DNA from: Marinobacter caseinilyticus
GTDB lineage: Bacteria > Pseudomonadota > Gammaproteobacteria > Pseudomonadales > Oleiphilaceae
Length of the DNA stretch: 64,000 nt
Assembly (NCBI RefSeq): GCF_011074955.1
Contig: NZ_WUQJ01000031.1
Location: 62,001 to 126,000, forward strand
Direction of reading: 5' to 3'
The notes below the pieces were generated by a model. The model searched no databases. It worked only from the letters and a program-made list of their open reading frames with translations, and was not told where the DNA came from. Of this stretch, positions 18,294 through 25,769 are shown piece after piece. The position numbers and the translations under genes were made by a program. Each line of letters begins with the position of its first letter. The first letter of the stretch is position 1.

Positions 18294-20141
18294 TTGAGTC
18301 AATTTTATACCTCCGATTCTTCGCCACGAACATTGTCGGGTGTTTGGCGGCTGCTGACTCTGGTGGCGATGGCCTGGACGCTGGCAACCCCGGCCCATGG
18401 CGCCGCCCGTCAACCTCCTGCTTCGATCATTGAATGGGTGATGACCGACCCGGCTATCAGCAGCCTTGAGGCGCTTCAAACGGCGACGCCGGACCTGAAT
18501 TGGCAGCGTTTTGATCCGTCACAGACCCTGAATTTTGGCCTCACCAGCGACGTGGTCTGGCTGCGGGTCACGGTTCCACCGGTCGCAGCTAACCGGGTAC
18601 TTGAGGTCGCCTACCCGGTACTTGACCATGTGGACGTGTACTGGGTTTTTAATCAGAACGTCATTGTGGACTACCATACCGGCGATCAGCGGCCGTTCAC
18701 CGACCGGCCTATTTACCACCGGCACTTCGTCTTTGCGGTTCCCCGAGAGGATGGCCCGGTGACCGGTTATGTGCGGATACAGACCGATGGCGCATTGCAG
18801 GTCCCGGTGGAAGTCACCAGCAGCGCCGAATTCCTCCGCGACGACCAGGGTTCGTACGGCTGGCAGATGCTGTTTGCCGGTATCATGATCGCCTTAACAC
18901 TGTTTAACACGCTGATTTTCTTAGTGGTCCGGGATTCAGCTTACCTGTGGTATGTGCTCAGCATTGTAACCAACAGCCTCAGCCTGCTGAGTATTCATGG
19001 CCTGACGTTTCAGTGGTTGTGGCCAAACCAACCGGCTTGGAACAACCCGCTGCTGGTGACGCTGCTAGCGCTTAACCTGATAACCGTGTCGGGCTTCACA
19101 CAACGGTTTTTACGTCTGCACATGACCGGTGGCTGGCCGTTGAGGGCGTGCCGAATCATCATGGCCGTGGGCGCCCTGAACTGTGTGATGATTCCTTTTT
19201 TCCCTTACAACCTGACCCTATACATGGTGATTGTGTCGGCCTTTGTGGCGTCACCAGTGATGCTGGCCATTGGTGTGTTCAACTGGTATCGCGGGGATAT
19301 TCTCGCTCGCTTTTACACGCCTGCGCTGGCGTTGCTGTTGCTGGGGTACACCGCCCAGACCCTGAGCAAGTTGGCATTGCTGCCGCGTATTCCGTTGTTT
19401 GAATATGGCTCACAGGTAGGGTTGGTGTTTGAAGTCATCTTGCTGTCGGTTGCACTCGCTTACCGTATCAACCTTGAGCGGCGACGCCGTCAACTGGCTC
19501 AGGAAGACGCACTTCGGATAGAACATGAGGCCAACCGGACCCTGGAGGCGAGCGTGGCCGAGCGTACGGACGCCCTGACACTCGCCAATGAGCGCCTGAA
19601 GGCTATGTCGCTGACCGATGGGCTCACGGGGATCGCCAACCGACGCCGGTTTGATGAGAAGCTGGCGGCCGAGTGGCGCCGCGCCGTGCGTCAACGCGCG
19701 CCGTTGAGCTTATTGATCCTGGATATTGATTACTTCAAGAAGGTCAATGATGAACTGGGGCATCTGAGTGGTGATGCCTGCCTGGTCGAATTGGCCCGCC
19801 TGTGCGAGACCGGGGTCGGTCGGGAAGGCGACCTGGTGGCGCGTTACGGCGGTGAGGAATTTGCCGTTCTGTTGCCGCACACGGAGTTGTACGGTGCCGA
19901 GAAAGTCGCCGAACGCTTGCGGGACAAGGTGTCTAACACGCCCATCGAGCTGCCGGAGCAGACGCGCCGGGTGCAGCTTCACATCAGTGTGGGTGTTGCC
20001 AGTCTCATTCCCGACGCTAACCTGGCGCCGGACAGGCTCATTCAATGGGCGGATGAGGCACTGTACGAAGCGAAGGCCAGCGGAAGAAACCGGGTCATGA
20101 CTTACCGCCATGACACCGTTTCGCCGCAGACAGGAGGCTAG
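18294..20141 (+). CDS. 7TMR-DISM diguanylate cyclase
   Basis: A membrane sensor predicted to make cyclic di-GMP. The 615 residues begin at TTG behind AGGATG. A signal sequence ending near ATPAHGA is followed by a 7TMR-DISM extracellular beta-sandwich domain (about 45-180) that may bind a ligand. Seven transmembrane helices (about 190-390), a short coiled coil and a GGDEF domain follow. GGEEF lies at 519-523, and an RxxD product-inhibition site (R510-D513) sits exactly five residues before it, so an active, feedback-inhibited cyclase is predicted. Its stop overlaps that of the convergent doxX-like gene (CTAG). Confidence 0.92.
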
Positions 20142-20524
20142 TTTTTCAGTTTGTAACGCCCGGGCCCGAGGAACATCAGCGCGAGAGCTGTAAACAGGAA
20201 GAACCCCTGCAGTTCGAGTGCCCAACCGCCGCTACTTTTCAGCGTCATCAGTTCATTGCTGTGCACCAGTGCCAATGCCACCAGCATGTTGAAGACAATC
20301 AGCAGGGCGCCAATTCGGGTTTGGTAGCCCAGAACGATCATGATTGGGGCAATGACCTCACCAACAAACACACCGTAGGCAAACACAGCGGGAATGCCAT
20401 GACCGGCCAACAGCCCCTCAATAAAGCCGACGCCATGAAACAGCTTGGCAATGCCGTGAAACAGCAGGAGTCCGCCGAGGGTCAAGCGAATGATGAGCTT
20501 ACCAAGATCAGCGTTTTCCAACAT
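20138..20524 (-). CDS. DoxX family membrane protein
   Basis: A 128-residue four-helix membrane protein of the DoxX/DoxD superfamily. Signatures are [25 protein letters not shown] at the N-terminus and [22 protein letters not shown] in the middle. The frame is open 37 codons further upstream, but the ATG at 20524 follows a textbook AAAAAGGAG site and gives the family N-terminus. It lies 67 bases after the globin gene on the same strand and is the last gene of the proposed five-gene operon. Family members are linked to redox or thiol chemistry at the membrane; the role here is unknown. Confidence 0.88.
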
Positions 20525-20591
20525 CGGGGTCTCCTTTTTGTCAGGCATTGGTTGGCGTGTGTTCCAGCGTCTGTCGCACCAGATTACCAGG

Positions 20592-21026
20592 TTATAAGTT
20601 GCGCACCTCTGAATGCAACGGTGCCAACCGGGCAAGCAGGCGGTTCTGGGCGCTGGTCGAAATCCGGTTCTTTTCCATCGCCAGAATCAGGTTTTCGGTC
20701 AGTGCATTGAACTGGGTGGCCGTGATATTCATATCTTTGTGAGCCTCTCGCATGTCCCTGCCACTGTAAGTGCACGGGCCGCCGCTGAGCTGACAGATAT
20801 GGTCGGTCAGGCCCTGATGAAGCTCCACGATGTCTACGCCTTTGAACTGGAAGGCGATGCGAGTGTCATCCACCACCCCGTACAGCATATCTTCGATGAT
20901 TTGGGCAATGCCAGCACGCTGGCCTAAATCTTCGTACAGACTGTCCGGTTCCGGTTGATTCAGGCTTTGGCAGCCGACCGCGAAGAGCAACACAGCCATC
21001 ACCATCAGATGTTTAAAGGAGGTCAT
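20592..21026 (-). CDS. Lipidated group 1 truncated hemoglobin
   Basis: A 144-residue protein with a lipoprotein signal peptide (lipobox FAVGC, Cys19) followed by a truncated-globin domain. Diagnostic are SLYEDLGQRAGIAQIIEDMLYGVVDD and the F-helix block GGPCTYSGRDMREAHKDMNIT, with the proximal heme histidine at residue 96. Truncated globins bind O2 or NO and are usually cytoplasmic, so a membrane-anchored periplasmic form is notable. The longer open frame (to 21179) is rejected because the ATG at 21026 follows AGGGAA and opens a normal signal peptide. It lies 20 bases after the DUF3034 gene. Confidence 0.85.
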   Translation of the reverse strand: MTSFKHLMVMAVLLFAVGCQSLNQPEPDSLYEDLGQRAGIAQIIEDMLYGVVDDTRIAFQFKGVDIVELHQGLTDHICQLSGGPCTYSGRDMREAHKDMNITATQFNALTENLILAMEKNRISTSAQNRLLARLAPLHSEVRNL

Positions 21027-21046
21027 AGTCGAGTTCCCTGCATTGA

Positions 21047-21904
21047 TTAAAAGCTGCCTTGAAGCGACAGATAGGCACCTTGCTGGTCTTTCAGGCCGGC
21101 GATGTCTCCCAGATTCACCCAGGCTGCGGTAATGGCCAGGTGGCGATTGGGAACCCAGGCGACAAATACATCCCACCAATCACTTTCACGGGCGAAACTC
21201 AGGTTGTCGGGTTTCTGGCGATACTCCACGCCGGTTAGCCAGCGTCGGTCAAGAAACACGCCAACGCTCGATTCAAGCTGCATATCGTAGCGATCGCCTT
21301 GGTCGCCGCCAAAGCCCAGCAAGCCACCCTGGTTGGCCTTGGTGCCGCGGAGGGTGGCATTGACCAGCACGTTGCGATCGAAGGCCGCCGCGAAGAATAA
21401 TTTGCTGCCCGCAAGGTAGAGGTCGGTGCCGGTCTCGTCCCGCGCCCCTACCGCAGACGGAATCGTAAATTCACGGTTACGCTTGTGCTGGATGCCCACG
21501 GCCCACTGGCCGTAGGGGCTGTACAGCACGTCACCCCAGAGCCGGACCTTGACGCCAAAGATATCTTGCGTGAGTTCATCCTCGTTGAGCGCGGCGCCGA
21601 GGGTATCCAGGTCCAGGGTTTGACGACCGACACTGAGTTCGACGCGATTGTGCCAGTTGATCGACGCTCCGGTGAAACTCACGGTGTAGTCATCCACGCT
21701 GGCCTGGGACAGTGCCAGCGTGCCACTCCATTCCTGGTCGCTGGCGTACCCGCTGAGCAACGCCCACGGCACCAGACCGCCGCCGGCGCTGCCTTCTATG
21801 GAGGTGACCCCCCCGGTTGCCCAGAGCCGACTCCCGGGTGCCGCCAGCGCGTGTCCGGTGGTCAGCAGCGCCAGGGTGATCCACGCCAGCAAAAGTCTTT
21901 TCAT
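21047..21904 (-). CDS. DUF3034 family exported protein, probable outer-membrane beta-barrel
   Basis: 285 residues. A signal peptide (MKRLLLAWITLALLTTGHALA) is followed by alternating hydrophobic/polar strands rich in aromatic residues and an aromatic C-terminal residue (LSLQGSF). Both are the look of a small outer-membrane beta-barrel. It matches DUF3034, which has no known function. A start at 21925 overlaps the upstream stop as ATGA, but the ATG at 21904 has GGGAG at good spacing and begins the signal peptide. It belongs to the operon with the GGDEF/EAL protein. Confidence 0.82.
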   Translation of the reverse strand: MKRLLLAWITLALLTTGHALAAPGSRLWATGGVTSIEGSAGGGLVPWALLSGYASDQEWSGTLALSQASVDDYTVSFTGASINWHNRVELSVGRQTLDLDTLGAALNEDELTQDIFGVKVRLWGDVLYSPYGQWAVGIQHKRNREFTIPSAVGARDETGTDLYLAGSKLFFAAAFDRNVLVNATLRGTKANQGGLLGFGGDQGDRYDMQLESSVGVFLDRRWLTGVEYRQKPDNLSFARESDWWDVFVAWVPNRHLAITAAWVNLGDIAGLKDQQGAYLSLQGSF

Positions 21905-21921
21905 TACTGCTCCCACCAGTC

Positions 21922-24291
21922 TCATGTTGATGAATTCGCACTCGCCTGCTCGACAGTCAACTCAGCGGCGCGGGTCTCAAATGTCTGCGCCCAGGCCGTC
22001 AGGTCTGTCGACACCATCGGCCGGCCCAAAAAGAACCCTTGCGCCAGATCGCAGCCCCAGCCCTGCAAAAGCTGCCAGCTCTCGACATTCTCAATGCCTT
22101 CCGCCACCACGCTCAGGCCCAGACCGTGGGCCATGTCGATCGTGGATTTGACGATCAATTGATCCTGAGGTTGGCTGCCGAGGTTGAGCACAAAGGACTT
22201 GTCGATCTTCAGTTCGTGTACGGGCAATTGGCGCAATTGGGCCAATGACGAATAACCGGTCCCGAAGTCGTCCACTGATAACCTGACGCCCAACGACCGC
22301 AGCTGCTCCAGGACTTGGGTGGCGACGCCCGCATCCGCCATGACGGCACTTTCCGTAATCTCAAAGGTGAGTTTGTTCATACGACCGTGCCAGCCCTTGA
22401 ATACGGTGTGGATCTCGTCAGCCAGATTTCGGTTGGTTAAATCCAGTGCCGACAGGTTGATGGCCACCCCAATATCCAGACCGTTCTTATGCCAATCCGC
22501 GGTATCCCGTGCAATACGACGCAGGATAAAGCCGGTTAGCTCCTGAATCTGACCGGAACGCTCGGCCAACCGGATAAATTCCTCTGGATTGATAAAGCCC
22601 AGCTCCGGGTGTCGCCACCGAATCAAGGCTTCGACTTGTGTAAACGTAGCCGAGCCAAACCTGACTTTAGGCTGATAATTCATGTACATATGCCCATCGT
22701 TCAGGGCGTTGGGCAGATCGCGTATCAGGCGTAGTTCCTTCAGGTGATCTTCATCACCGCCCGGGCGGTAGAACGCCATGTGGTTTTCAGCGTGAGCTGC
22801 CCGCCCCAGGGTCAGGCTCAACCGGCGCCGAACTTCATCCGACGTGCTGGCATCGGCAGGCAGTTCCAGAATGGCCATGTGCAGTTTGAGATTAATGGGG
22901 GTATCGCTGATCACCGCGGGCAGCTCGGCGTGGCTTCTCAGGCGGGCCAGCAATGAGCGTAACGACGATTCATCCTCGACCGGTAACAGCGCAATGAACT
23001 CATTGCCGCCGGTACGGCCGAAGATACAGTTTATCGGCAACTGACCACGCAGTCGAAGCCCGATGGCGAGCAGAGCCTGATCGCCAAAACTGTAACCCAA
23101 GGTCTCATTCAATGCCTTGAAATCGGTCAGCGAAATGCCCACCAGATAGCCCTTGCGGTGCTCTGAAAACCAGTCACGCAGTTCGGACTCAATGGCCTTG
23201 CGATTTGGCAATCCGCTGAGGTCGTCGTGAATCGCGTCGTGCCTGATCCGGTGTTCCCGTTCGCGGATTCGAAGCAACATGTCATTGAGCGCTTTGCTCA
23301 GAGTTCTGAGCTCGCCCCCGGTACGCAGATCTGGGGGCTGAACGGAGCGGCCCTCACCAATGGCCGCGGCAAAGTTGGCCAGTTGCAATACCGGACGCCC
23401 CAGCGCTCTGGCCGTCAGCACCACCAAAACGCCGGCGATGAACAGCGCGGTCAATACCAGCAGCAGCATTTCAAGCGCGAGTTGGTAGTAGGTCTCCAGT
23501 GCTTTGGCCCGATCGCTTAATAACAGTGCGTGGATGGACCCGTCGGACCCTGACTTGAGGTTCAGGGACTGGATAAAATAGCGATTACTATCCACCAGCT
23601 CTGCCCCATTCAGCTTGTTGAACTGGGACAACAATTCCTGATCCAGGGCGCGTTGTGGCAGGCTACTGGCAAGGATCATGGCCTCACCACCCTGGCGTCG
23701 CTCAAATACGACCTGAGTGCCGGTCAGATCGCCAATAAACTCCGCAAACGCATTGTTCAAAGGAAAACCGGCCGCCAGCCAGGCCCGCAGGCCAGGGCCC
23801 TGAATTGGCACGATCAGAATCTGGTAAGCTCGATTTTGCCAGCTCACAATTTCGGCGGCCGAGCCCGATTCCTGTGCTGAGGCGAGCAGGTTGGCAAAGG
23901 GTAATGGTGTGCCATTCTCCAGTCCCTGCAGGTTGGCAATCAACGTGCCGCTGTTGTCTGCCAGCATGGCCAGGCCGGTTCCGGCGCGGGCACTGTGGTT
24001 AGCCAGAACGCTGGTGATGGTGGGGGTATCACGGGTTGCGATGGCGGATTTGAATCCGAAATCGTCGGCAACGATTCGCAAGTTTGAGATCAACAACTCG
24101 GTCCGCCGATCAATCACTTCCATCGCAATGCCTTCGGCAATGGACAGCTGTTTGGCGGCGCGGGTTTCTTCTTCTTCGAACAGATAAAACATCATGACCC
24201 CAGCAATACTGATGCTGGTGATGACAACCGACGAGAGCATCGCCAACATCAGGCGGCCTCTAAAACCCGGAGTCGGAAACCATGTCTTCAT
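21922..24291 (-). CDS. Membrane GGDEF/EAL protein, predicted c-di-GMP phosphodiesterase
   Basis: 789 residues. Transmembrane helices lie at about 18-36 and 271-293 and enclose a periplasmic sensor region of some 230 residues. A HAMP-like region (294-345), a GGDEF domain from about 352 and an EAL domain from about 525 follow. The GGDEF motif is degenerate (GGNEF, 428-432). The EAL motif is intact (EALIRW from 554) together with DDFGTGYSSL and the KIDKSFV lysine, so c-di-GMP hydrolysis is the likely output. The layout resembles LapD, but the EAL residues are conserved here. It overlaps the upstream cupredoxin gene by one base. Confidence 0.9.
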   Translation of the reverse strand: MKTWFPTPGFRGRLMLAMLSSVVITSISIAGVMMFYLFEEEETRAAKQLSIAEGIAMEVIDRRTELLISNLRIVADDFGFKSAIATRDTPTITSVLANHSARAGTGLAMLADNSGTLIANLQGLENGTPLPFANLLASAQESGSAAEIVSWQNRAYQILIVPIQGPGLRAWLAAGFPLNNAFAEFIGDLTGTQVVFERRQGGEAMILASSLPQRALDQELLSQFNKLNGAELVDSNRYFIQSLNLKSGSDGSIHALLLSDRAKALETYYQLALEMLLLVLTALFIAGVLVVLTARALGRPVLQLANFAAAIGEGRSVQPPDLRTGGELRTLSKALNDMLLRIREREHRIRHDAIHDDLSGLPNRKAIESELRDWFSEHRKGYLVGISLTDFKALNETLGYSFGDQALLAIGLRLRGQLPINCIFGRTGGNEFIALLPVEDESSLRSLLARLRSHAELPAVISDTPINLKLHMAILELPADASTSDEVRRRLSLTLGRAAHAENHMAFYRPGGDEDHLKELRLIRDLPNALNDGHMYMNYQPKVRFGSATFTQVEALIRWRHPELGFINPEEFIRLAERSGQIQELTGFILRRIARDTADWHKNGLDIGVAINLSALDLTNRNLADEIHTVFKGWHGRMNKLTFEITESAVMADAGVATQVLEQLRSLGVRLSVDDFGTGYSSLAQLRQLPVHELKIDKSFVLNLGSQPQDQLIVKSTIDMAHGLGLSVVAEGIENVESWQLLQGWGCDLAQGFFLGRPMVSTDLTAWAQTFETRAAELTVEQASANSST

Positions 24292-24956
24292 TAGAGATCA
24301 CGGAAGCGCTTTTGCAGGCCTTCCAGGCCAGAACGGGGCGCTTTCTCAGGCATAACATCCAATGTTAGCGTTTGTGTGATTGGAAATGGTCCCGTCAGCG
24401 TAATGAATTGACTGGTGGTATTGTTGCGCAATCTCGGGTGCCAGATTTCAACATTCAGGCCGCCCTCCAGGCTATCGTCTGGCAACTCAAACTGACTTAT
24501 GCCGTCATCTCCAGAACGGCTCGCCTGGCTTTTGTCGGTCACCACAATAAAACCCTGCATGTTGTCGTGAATATTGCAGCCGAGCTCAACGATGCCGGTT
24601 TTATCAAATCGAATGGGCGCCTCGGGCTGACCGGCGTATAGCTCAATGTTCAGCGGCTTGGGCTTCGAGAAGGAATACACATGATGTTGGGTGTTGTCCC
24701 GGTTTGGAAACGACACCGTTGTGTCTTGCGGGATAATCAGCACATGGGGGGCGAACGCACGCTGCTGCTGCGCCATCTCAGCAGTGGCTGGTGAGGGTGT
24801 CATACCGTTGTCAGCAGTCACCACCACACCAGGCAGCGGCTTGCCGGTGGATTGATCGTAAAATTCAAGCGAGACAGAGCCTGCGAAACTCTGCAACGGC
24901 GTTCCGAGCGCCAGAATAAAAGCGGCAAGCAAACCAAAGTGACCATTAGACAGCAT
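24291..24956 (-). CDS. Periplasmic cupredoxin-like protein (annotated elsewhere as methylamine utilization protein)
   Basis: 221 residues with a signal peptide (cleavage near LQSFAG). A carboxypeptidase-regulatory-like beta segment is followed by a cupredoxin fold. Type-1 copper-type ligands are visible: H91/H92 in NTQHHVYSF, then C127, H130 and M133 in GCNIHDNMQGF. Homologues are often labelled methylamine utilization protein, but no methylamine dehydrogenase genes are here, so the label should not be taken literally. It is the first gene of the operon and overlaps the GGDEF/EAL gene by one base (TAATG). Confidence 0.8.
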   Translation of the reverse strand: MLSNGHFGLLAAFILALGTPLQSFAGSVSLEFYDQSTGKPLPGVVVTADNGMTPSPATAEMAQQQRAFAPHVLIIPQDTTVSFPNRDNTQHHVYSFSKPKPLNIELYAGQPEAPIRFDKTGIVELGCNIHDNMQGFIVVTDKSQASRSGDDGISQFELPDDSLEGGLNVEIWHPRLRNNTTSQFITLTGPFPITQTLTLDVMPEKAPRSGLEGLQKRFRDL

Positions 24957-25082: not shown

Positions 25083-25769
25083 TCATGGTTTTGGTCCCAG
25101 CATAAAGTGAATATGGTTTCGAATCAGCAGGTTTTCCCAATATTCACGCATCCAGTCCCAAGCGGCGTGCTTTACCTCGGATACAAAGGGATCAAGATTC
25201 AGTTCGTAGTAATCCGGCGATCCGGCAATCTGAACCACGGTGATGGTAATGGACTGGTCCAGCTCATTGGCAAAAGGTTCGCCAATGAGCTGATGGGCAA
25301 GCAGGTTTGCCTGGGTGGCCTCAACATCCACCAGTTGGCTGCTCCGGGTGGAGCGGTTGTTCTCGTACATCTCTTCCATCAGTCGATGACACAGGTACGC
25401 CTTGATGAGCAGGCCATCAAGGCCATCGTAGCGCGCCAGCAGTATGGAGGGTTGAGTAAAATAGCGGGTGGCGGCGCGAATAAACGGGGCGAACAGCGCT
25501 GATTTGCCGGCTTGCTTGGCACAGGCGTCGACGCACTCGATCAAGCGGGGCGCCATTTCAATGTATTCAACCGCGAACTGAAAGAGGCACGTGGCCGGTT
25601 GATAGCCTTCCACTGTAATACTGTCCGGTAGGCTTGCAGCCCGGCTTCGCATTTGTCGCAAAAACTCACCGGACCGTGCTTCCTGCCGGCGGGCCTGGGC
25701 GATGATGTTTAATACAGCCGCTGGTGTCATGTCAGGGGATGCCGAAGTATGCACTGAATAGGGTCGCAA
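25083..25769 (-). CDS. Conserved hypothetical protein, unrecognised
   Basis: A 228-residue soluble protein that I do not recognise. It is mostly helical in look. It has an N-terminal segment with alternating charge (AQARRQEARSGEFLRQMRSRAASL) and a middle part rich in hydrophobic and aromatic residues (CLFQFAVEYIEMAPRLIECVDACAKQAG). The C-terminus ends WMREYWENLLIRNHIHFMLGPKP. There is no signal peptide, no transmembrane helix and no metal-binding pattern. It is alone on the minus strand, 126 bases upstream of the cupredoxin operon. Coding is supported by length, codon use like its neighbours and the absence of a competing frame. Confidence 0.6.
   Translation of the reverse strand: MRPYSVHTSASPDMTPAAVLNIIAQARRQEARSGEFLRQMRSRAASLPDSITVEGYQPATCLFQFAVEYIEMAPRLIECVDACAKQAGKSALFAPFIRAATRYFTQPSILLARYDGLDGLLIKAYLCHRLMEEMYENNRSTRSSQLVDVEATQANLLAHQLIGEPFANELDQSITITVVQIAGSPDYYELNLDPFVSEVKHAAWDWMREYWENLLIRNHIHFMLGPKP

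What the first reader, a model, noticed from the sequence alone, without database searches (positions are those of the whole stretch)
20138..24956. Five-gene operon linking periplasmic copper and heme proteins to c-di-GMP turnover
Genes run head to tail with one-base overlap or short gaps: a cupredoxin-like protein with C/H/M ligands, a membrane GGDEF/EAL protein with intact EAL and degenerate GGDEF, a DUF3034 barrel-like protein, a lipidated truncated globin and a DoxX protein. The first three occur together in other bacteria as far as I recall. The globin and DoxX additions suggest a periplasmic redox or gas (NO/O2/copper) signal that lowers c-di-GMP. A 7TMR-DISM cyclase faces the operon, offering an opposing output.
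Basis: partly seen in the sequence, partly recalled or inferred. Interest (0 to 1): 0.68.

Follow-up and report, generated by a model that had tools for sequence, protein, structure and literature searches.

The report
Copper-protein sensor cassette driving c-di-GMP breakdown
In this marine bacterium a secreted copper protein, an outer-membrane barrel and a secreted haem globin are encoded beside a membrane receptor that should destroy the signal molecule c-di-GMP; relatives pair the same copper protein with receptors of quite different outputs, which points to a portable sensor of the cell envelope whose trigger is unknown.

Summary
The five-gene operon is real at 20138-24956 (minus strand), and its core is widely conserved. 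In 89 DUF3034 loci (86 distinct) the secreted globin adjoins DUF3034 in 89, the cupredoxin is present in 80 and the GGDEF/EAL receptor in 77. DoxX and the facing 7TMR cyclase are lineage-bound.

New here: in 133 of 149 distinct cupredoxin loci the next gene downstream is a dCache_3-type HAMP receptor, but its output varies: EAL (100), Ser/Thr kinase (24), class III cyclase (3), hybrid histidine kinase (3). All four predicted copper ligands are kept in 149 of 149. DUF3034 models as a 12-strand outer-membrane barrel. The globin is a group 1 truncated haemoglobin with a Cys pair and an apolar distal pocket.

Most likely: the cupredoxin is the periplasmic input subunit of a portable transmembrane receptor, here with an intact EAL phosphodiesterase; barrel and globin deliver or condition the signal. 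Signal identity (copper, redox, NO/CO) and physical contact are inferred. NirS shows no positive link, and this genome lacks full-length NirS. No paper describing the module turned up in the searches made.

The parts
24291..24956 (-). Secreted cupredoxin (221 aa): cupredoxin domain about residues 56-140, with predicted type 1 copper ligands H91, C127, H130, M133 in an amicyanin-like CxxHxxM loop, and further beta-strands after residue 141
   Evidence: the four ligands are kept in 149 of 149 loci
21922..24291 (-). Membrane receptor (789 aa): periplasmic dCache_3, HAMP, degenerate GGDEF (GGNEF), intact EAL; predicted c-di-GMP phosphodiesterase
   Evidence: ten EAL active-site positions identical in 74 of 74 relatives, GGDEF motif literal in 12 of 74
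21047..21904 (-). DUF3034 outer-membrane beta-barrel (285 aa), modelled with 12 long strands, N-terminal Gly-rich segment of low confidence
   Evidence: Pfam 5.9e-107; AlphaFold2 mean pLDDT 85; FapF 5o65 Z 19.9, rmsd 3.0 over 220; COG4313 channel 4rl8 Z 18.1, rmsd 3.2 over 219
20592..21026 (-). Lipoprotein group 1 truncated haemoglobin (144 aa) with proximal His96, Cys78-Cys85 pair and apolar distal pocket (L48 at B10, L69 at E7, L73 at E11)
20138..20524 (-). DoxX-family membrane protein (128 aa); accessory, lineage-bound
   Evidence: Pfam 1.2e-17; HvfX-family model 27 bits, below its cut-off of 80; distribution

Best explanation
An envelope-spanning sensory cassette. SHOWN by sequence: a secreted cupredoxin with fully conserved copper ligands is encoded directly upstream, often with overlapping reading frames, of a transmembrane receptor with a Cache-type periplasmic domain and HAMP; the receptor's cytoplasmic output is swapped between lineages while the cupredoxin stays; a DUF3034 outer-membrane barrel and a secreted, Cys-paired, apolar-pocket truncated globin form a second pair, together in every DUF3034 locus read, that joins it in many loci. 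INFERRED: the cupredoxin is the input subunit. Its metal or redox state sets its contact with the dCache_3 domain, HAMP passes the change on, and in this genome the EAL phosphodiesterase then lowers c-di-GMP (the degenerate GGDEF being at most regulatory). The barrel lets the stimulus through the outer membrane, and the globin at that membrane binds a diatomic ligand or exchanges electrons and so conditions the copper protein. The stimulus is most likely copper or redox state, possibly modulated by NO or CO, which an apolar distal pocket tends to favour over O2. DoxX is an optional redox-side accessory in Marinobacter relatives.
For: In 133 of 149 distinct cupredoxin loci (136 of 152 with three duplicates) a receptor matching the dCache_3-HAMP profile lies directly downstream on the same strand, most often overlapping by 4 bases or 1 base (starts taken as the first start codon). 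Output differs: EAL 100 (by full-length profile over 300 bits), Ser/Thr kinase 24, class III cyclase 3, hybrid histidine kinase 3. Ligands kept 149 of 149. In this genome one dCache_3 protein (E <= 0.001) and one cupredoxin of the family (E <= 1e-8) were found, and they are neighbours. Phylum sample of 398 genomes: cupredoxin at 100 bits or more in 38 of 39 DUF3034 genomes against 15 of 359 others; module-type globin at 140 bits or more in 39 of 39 against 2 of 359. EAL sites intact 74 of 74 while the GGDEF motif is literal in 12 of 74. DUF3034 with globin also occurs beside kinase-type receptors (L185, L187, L199).
Against: No physical contact, metal content, ligand binding or enzyme activity was tested. 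Sixteen of 149 cupredoxin genes have no profile-matching receptor downstream (of these, L154 is cut by a contig end, L211 and L214 have a small membrane protein there, L210 a CHASE4 protein with a kinase remnant). L153, L155, L159 and L160 pair the cupredoxin with a ~410-aa putative barrel and no receptor, and L073, L096, L114 and L144 have cupredoxin, DUF3034 and globin without receptor, which fits transport or redox chemistry as well as sensing. Seven DUF3034-globin loci lack both cupredoxin and EAL receptor (L016, L074, L076, L079, L081, L094, L123), besides the decayed copy L089; in four of their genomes (G389, G225, G261, G213) a cupredoxin with its EAL receptor lies elsewhere. L111 has the receptor while its genome's cupredoxin lies elsewhere without one (L146). 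The NO reading gets no help from NirS: 14 of 38 DUF3034 genomes against 13 of 23 without, and none full-length in this genome.
Confidence: 0.55

Rival explanations
1. A periplasmic and outer-membrane metal or redox system (copper or haem-ligand acquisition or detoxification): the barrel admits the substrate, cupredoxin and globin bind or convert it, and the receptor merely senses the same substrate on its own and does not touch the cupredoxin.
For: Cupredoxin without receptor but with a putative ~410-aa barrel (L153, L155, L159, L160) or with DUF3034 and globin (L073, L096, L114, L144); DUF3034 and globin without cupredoxin or receptor in seven loci. The barrel fold resembles channels.
Against: The cupredoxin follows the receptor (133 of 149 loci) more closely than it follows DUF3034 (92 of 149 within 6 kb), often with overlapping reading frames and across several output types.
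Confidence: 0.25
2. A periplasmic NO (or O2) defence unit: cupredoxin passes electrons to the secreted globin, which removes NO, and the EAL receptor couples the same stress to biofilm dispersal.
For: Group 1 truncated globin related to HbN; conserved haem-binding His 86 of 86; apolar pocket; copper protein plus haem protein side by side.
Against: The Tyr at B10 and Gln at E11 found in HbN are replaced by aliphatic or aromatic residues, so NO dioxygenation by stabilised bound O2 is unlikely; no positive link with NirS; many loci keep the cupredoxin-receptor pair with no DUF3034-globin pair beside it (48 of the 136 receptor-bearing loci held).
Confidence: 0.12
3. Operon hitch-hiking: unrelated envelope genes kept together by shared expression only.
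For: No biochemical link has been shown.
Against: Association recurs in changed orders and orientations: cupredoxin and EAL divergent from DUF3034 and globin in six loci (L075, L077, L078, L080, L104, L110), order inverted in L102, and with swapped outputs.
Confidence: 0.08

Closest known systems
NspS-MbaA polyamine receptor (Vibrio cholerae; abstract of PMC8967002 read)
   Same: Two-part receptor that sets c-di-GMP in answer to an outside signal; that NspS is the periplasmic binding protein is in the abstract start of PMC5646818 listed
   Different: NspS binds polyamines and is not a copper protein; the abstract calls the receptor bifunctional, whereas here GGDEF is degenerate; the barrel, the globin and the swapping of output domains seen here are not described in that abstract
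YfiBNR (recalled, not searched)
   Same: Outer-membrane, periplasmic and inner-membrane parts feeding one c-di-GMP enzyme
   Different: The enzyme is a cyclase; no copper or haem protein
NbdA and MucR with MHYT domains (recalled, not searched)
   Same: Proposed copper or NO input to an EAL phosphodiesterase
   Different: There the copper site is proposed within the membrane part of the enzyme itself; here it is a separate secreted protein
Amicyanin and related type 1 copper proteins
   Same: Cupredoxin fold (2gb2 Z 11.3, rmsd 1.7 over 83) and CxxHxxM loop (amicyanin's loop spacing recalled)
   Different: Extra strands outside the cupredoxin domain; the neighbours scanned are not methylamine dehydrogenase genes
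Group 1 truncated haemoglobin HbN (1idr)
   Same: Profile match 2.8e-25, proximal His
   Different: Secreted or lipidated, conserved Cys pair, apolar distal pocket
FapF and COG4313 outer-membrane channels (5o65, 4rl8)
   Same: Barrel fold
   Different: No sequence relation shown; function of DUF3034 unknown

Membership tests
c-di-GMP phosphodiesterase (EAL) | EAL fold with complete catalytic residues | tested here: met
   E554, L556, R558, N612, E644, D674, D675, K695, E731, Q751 identical in 74 of 74; which residues are catalytic is recalled
c-di-GMP phosphodiesterase (EAL) | Hydrolysis of c-di-GMP | not testable with these tools
   Needs an enzyme assay
Diguanylate cyclase (GGDEF) activity of the same protein | GG[DE]EF signature | tested here: not met
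   Window reads GGNEF; literal GGDEF in 12 of 74 relatives
Type 1 copper protein (cupredoxin) | Cupredoxin fold | tested here: met
   Model pLDDT 92; 4hcf Z 12.1, rmsd 1.7 over 83; 6hbe Z 12.0, rmsd 2.2 over 91
Type 1 copper protein (cupredoxin) | His-Cys-His-Met ligand set | tested here: met
   149 of 149 loci
Type 1 copper protein (cupredoxin) | Bound copper, blue absorption | not testable with these tools
   Needs purified protein
Amicyanin of the mau system | Neighbouring methylamine dehydrogenase genes | tested here: inconclusive
   None among the seven window proteins scanned with Pfam; the rest of the genome was not searched for them
Group 1 truncated haemoglobin | Sequence family and proximal His | tested here: met
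   (His 86 of 86)
Group 1 truncated haemoglobin | Polar distal pocket (Tyr B10, Gln E11 as in HbN) | tested here: not met
   B10 L/V/I/M in 84 of 85, E11 L/F in 84 of 85; canonical residues and helix names recalled, placed on the alignment. A variable feature of the family, so the family name is kept
Outer-membrane beta-barrel | Signal peptide and closed barrel of amphipathic strands | tested here: met
   Model with N-terminal helix 2-18 and 12 strands of 8 or more residues, matching solved barrels; location itself not tested
dCache_3 receptor | dCache_3 plus HAMP | tested here: met
   42.7 and 27.3 bits, both above Pfam's cut-offs; the only dCache_3 match at E <= 0.001 in this genome
Two-part receptor with a periplasmic partner protein (NspS-MbaA kind) | Physical contact of the secreted partner with the receptor's periplasmic domain | not testable with these tools
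   Only gene linkage shown
HvfX-type DoxX | Score over the NCBIfam cut-off | tested here: not met
   27 bits against 80

The most novel reading that the evidence does not exclude
A portable copper-protein co-receptor: one cupredoxin family serves as detachable input subunit for Cache-HAMP receptors with at least four output types (c-di-GMP phosphodiesterase, Ser/Thr kinase, class III nucleotide cyclase, histidine kinase), in many lineages fed by an outer-membrane barrel and a secreted haem globin, so that copper or redox state outside the inner membrane is read by a blue-copper protein used for signalling rather than electron transport.
Probability: 0.42. Interest if true: 0.82.

Novelty: new variant of a known kind. 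Interest (0 to 1): 0.64.

Why it matters
Blue copper proteins are known as electron carriers; a family kept beside transmembrane receptors with changing outputs would make one of them a sensory subunit and give a handle on how bacteria read copper, redox state or NO outside the cytoplasm. It also gives DUF3034 (unknown function) a predicted fold and constant partners, and defines a secreted branch of truncated globins with an unusual haem pocket. The four genes are few, conserved and testable in harmless marine strains.

Tried and rejected
NO link through own denitrification: NirS test not supportive (full-length taken as E at or below 1e-100). Anti-phage defence: five window proteins, no PADLOC match. 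HvfX copper-peptide maturation for DoxX: below cut-off. DUF3034 by sequence against solved structures: two weak matches, not credible, hence the fold search. Promoter and terminator scan: counts near the shuffle means, not used. A tree of 149 cupredoxins was a quick tree with many weak forks; it needs at least 7 changes among output types (loci without receptor left out) and 14 of DUF3034 presence, used only as a hint that modules were reassembled more than once; in it L212 was labelled 'receptor without output' although its next gene is a pyruvate dehydrogenase subunit, and L183, L190 and L207 were unlabelled (L190 and L207 were found to be kinases later). A crude regular expression for a motif in the receptors was too loose to be used. 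Papers: ten searches, none describing the module; one search was run to find the NspS-MbaA comparison; the five papers were seen as a listing only. Of the two papers that name DUF3034 I saw a passage of one (PMC12548924: a retron figure legend that elsewhere says DUF3037) and only the listing of the other (PMC4255298). For PMC11976967 I saw passages; for PMC8967002 the abstract and section list. Held back from view in no count: the cupredoxin rows under 84 bits, 31 of 71 places and one place (G703) were not fetched.
Full report
WHAT IS THERE. The finding is correct in its coordinates and gene order. Minus strand: cupredoxin 24291-24956, receptor 21922-24291, DUF3034 21047-21904, globin 20592-21026, DoxX 20138-20524; the + strand 7TMR-DISM cyclase 18294-20141 converges on DoxX. 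The window is G000:C25:62001-126000. It is a Marinobacter or close relative: the nearest named loci are Marinobacter (DUF3034 up to 77% identity), and genome G447, rated the same genus, has a contig of the same length as one of M. algicola DG893 (inference).

HOW CONSTANT IS IT. In 398 Pseudomonadota genomes DUF3034 occurs in 39, and in 38 of 61 of the window's family. I read 88 loci plus the window (89; three are duplicate contigs, L008/L085, L010/L128, L013/L133). The globin adjoins DUF3034 in 89 of 89, the cupredoxin is found in 80 of 89 and the EAL receptor in 77 of 89. In the phylum sample alone the counts are 39 of 39 for the globin, 33 of 39 for the cupredoxin, 31 of 39 for the EAL receptor and 30 of 39 for all four; in the family sample 37 of 38 for the cupredoxin and 36 of 38 for the EAL receptor. 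Five more DUF3034 genomes of the phylum sample carry the cupredoxin elsewhere, and one (G078) has none. From, cupredoxin at 100 bits or more is in 38 of 39 DUF3034 genomes and 15 of 359 others; the module's globin at 140 bits or more is in 39 of 39 and 2 of 359 (G154, G328). Fifteen further DUF3034 loci met later (L175-L180, L185, L187, L197, L199, L211-L215) also all hold the globin. DoxX is adjacent in 18 of 38 of the family sample and in 4 of 39 of the phylum sample, all the same genus; the facing 7TMR cyclase above 500 bits in 11 of 38 of the family sample. Order and orientation vary: in six loci (L075, L077, L078, L080, L104, L110) the cupredoxin-EAL pair diverges from DUF3034-globin, in L102 the order is DUF3034, globin, cupredoxin, EAL. 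This argues against simple inheritance of one frozen operon.

THE PARTS. Receptor: dCache_3, HAMP, GGDEF reading GGNEF, complete EAL. Ten EAL active-site positions are identical in 74 of 74 relatives; the GGDEF motif is literal in 12 of 74. So a phosphodiesterase is predicted and cyclase activity is not. Cupredoxin: model with pLDDT 92, residues about 56-140 a cupredoxin (4hcf Z 12.1, 6hbe Z 12.0, amicyanin 2gb2 Z 11.3), with the predicted ligands H91, C127, H130, M133. Neither Pfam nor NCBIfam names this family over a cut-off for the window protein. DUF3034: model with pLDDT 85 and twelve long strands, closest to FapF (Z 19.9) and a COG4313 channel (Z 18.1); fold likeness only. Globin: group 1 truncated haemoglobin (HbN 2.8e-25), lipobox-like signal in 72 of 86 and a hydrophobic leader in all others but the fragment L089. 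Its proximal His is kept in 86 of 86, CD1 Phe in 85 of 85, two Cys in 85 of 85 (likely a disulphide), and the distal positions B10, E7 and E11 are apolar in 84, 85 and 84 of 85. Helix labels are recalled and set by the alignment.

THE WIDER PATTERN. Counting all 152 loci with a cupredoxin at 90 bits or more (149 distinct), a dCache_3-HAMP profile match lies directly downstream on the same strand in 136 (133 distinct), most often overlapping by 4 bases or 1 base; starts are the first start codon, so overlaps are approximate. By Pfam or, for EAL, a full-length profile over 300 bits, the outputs of the 149 are: EAL 100; Ser/Thr kinase 24 (22 and two, L190 and L207); class III cyclase 3 (L151, L156, L219); hybrid histidine kinase 3 (L169, L173, L203; a di-haem peroxidase of the MauG type stands beside L169 and L173); receptor-like protein without recognised output 4 (L197, L213, L211, L214, the last two without a clear profile match); truncated at a contig end 1 (L183); no profile-matching receptor 14 (among them L154, cut by a contig end, and L210, with a CHASE4 protein and kinase remnant). 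These loci are not a random sample: 77 distinct ones were reached through DUF3034 and 72 through cupredoxin searches, 40 of the 72 from one order (I fetched 40 of its 71 listed places, and 6 of the 8 places, one of the other two, G147, being held already). The four copper ligands are kept in 149 of 149 regardless of output, whereas the neighbour residue H92 is N in all 25 kinase-type or then unassigned rows and D131 also differs by output type. DUF3034 and globin accompany kinase-type receptors too (L185, L187, L199). In another set (L148, L158, L163-L167) a different ~410-aa protein takes the place of DUF3034 and globin behind cupredoxin and EAL; of five proteins of that size scanned, two matched a porin family weakly. 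In this genome one dCache_3 protein (E <= 0.001) and one cupredoxin of this family (E <= 1e-8) were found, and they are neighbours.

HOW IT MOST LIKELY WORKS. What stays together through output exchange is cupredoxin plus Cache-type sensor. The simplest reading is that the copper protein is the sensor's periplasmic input subunit, as NspS is for MbaA (abstract of PMC8967002; listing). Here the output is c-di-GMP breakdown. The barrel and the globin are fixed to each other and often join; I infer that they bring or condition the stimulus at the outer membrane. The globin's apolar pocket should disfavour stable O2 binding and leave NO or CO, or pure redox chemistry, as candidates; this is inference from haem-protein chemistry, not a test. 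A test of own NO production gave no support: NirS, full length, in 14 of 38 DUF3034 genomes against 13 of 23 without, and absent from this genome.

WHAT SPEAKS AGAINST. Seven DUF3034-globin loci have neither cupredoxin nor EAL receptor beside them, although in four of their genomes a cupredoxin with its EAL receptor lies elsewhere (L147, L150, L152, L162); four (L073, L096, L114, L144) have the cupredoxin without a receptor, L111 has the receptor without the cupredoxin, and 14 of 149 cupredoxin loci have no profile-matching receptor and no receptor-like membrane protein behind them other than the two noted. Transport or redox chemistry with a bystander receptor remains possible (rival 1). How many dCache_3 receptors elsewhere lack a cupredoxin was not surveyed. 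Nothing here shows contact, metal, haem or enzyme activity. The cupredoxin tree is weakly resolved.

LITERATURE. Ten searches of the open-access library found no paper on DUF3034 with EAL, on cupredoxin with a Cache domain, or on 'methylamine utilization protein' with GGDEF. Most subscription journals and all bioRxiv preprints are not covered. Truncated-globin domains fused to periplasmic multihaem cytochromes are described in cable bacteria (passages of PMC11976967), a different setting.

VERDICT. New variant of a known kind (receptors with a periplasmic partner protein), with an unusual input protein.

Noticed in passing
window 25083-25769 (-): A 228-aa protein with no match in Pfam, NCBIfam or PADLOC lies upstream of the cupredoxin; relatives stand at the same place in 36 of the 89 DUF3034 loci, so it may be a lineage-specific neighbour of the module.
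   Followed up: partly
L169 4940-5950 and L173 6549-6884: A MauG-type di-haem peroxidase stands between a distant cupredoxin of this family and a hybrid histidine kinase, so again copper and haem proteins flank a receptor.
   Followed up: partly
L166 2372-3610, L163 8983-10218 and similar: A ~410-aa protein, weakly porin-like in some, follows cupredoxin and EAL where DUF3034 and globin are missing; in L153, L155, L159 and L160 a protein of that size follows the cupredoxin with no receptor.
   Followed up: partly
L009 (Marinobacter salarius R9SW1): The EAL receptor reading frame is split into three fragments, and the facing 7TMR frame into two, while the cupredoxin, DUF3034, globin and DoxX frames look whole.
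   Followed up: no
L089 (G078:C3): A second DUF3034-globin copy is decayed, with a stop codon inside each of the two genes, as if the pair had lost its use together.
   Followed up: no
L197 6504-7430, L213 6513-7595, L211 6507-7520: Receptor-like membrane proteins behind the cupredoxin that end without any recognised output domain.
   Followed up: partly
PMC12548924, figure 5 legend: The only DUF3034 mention in that paper appears to be a slip for DUF3037, which the same legend uses otherwise.
   Followed up: yes
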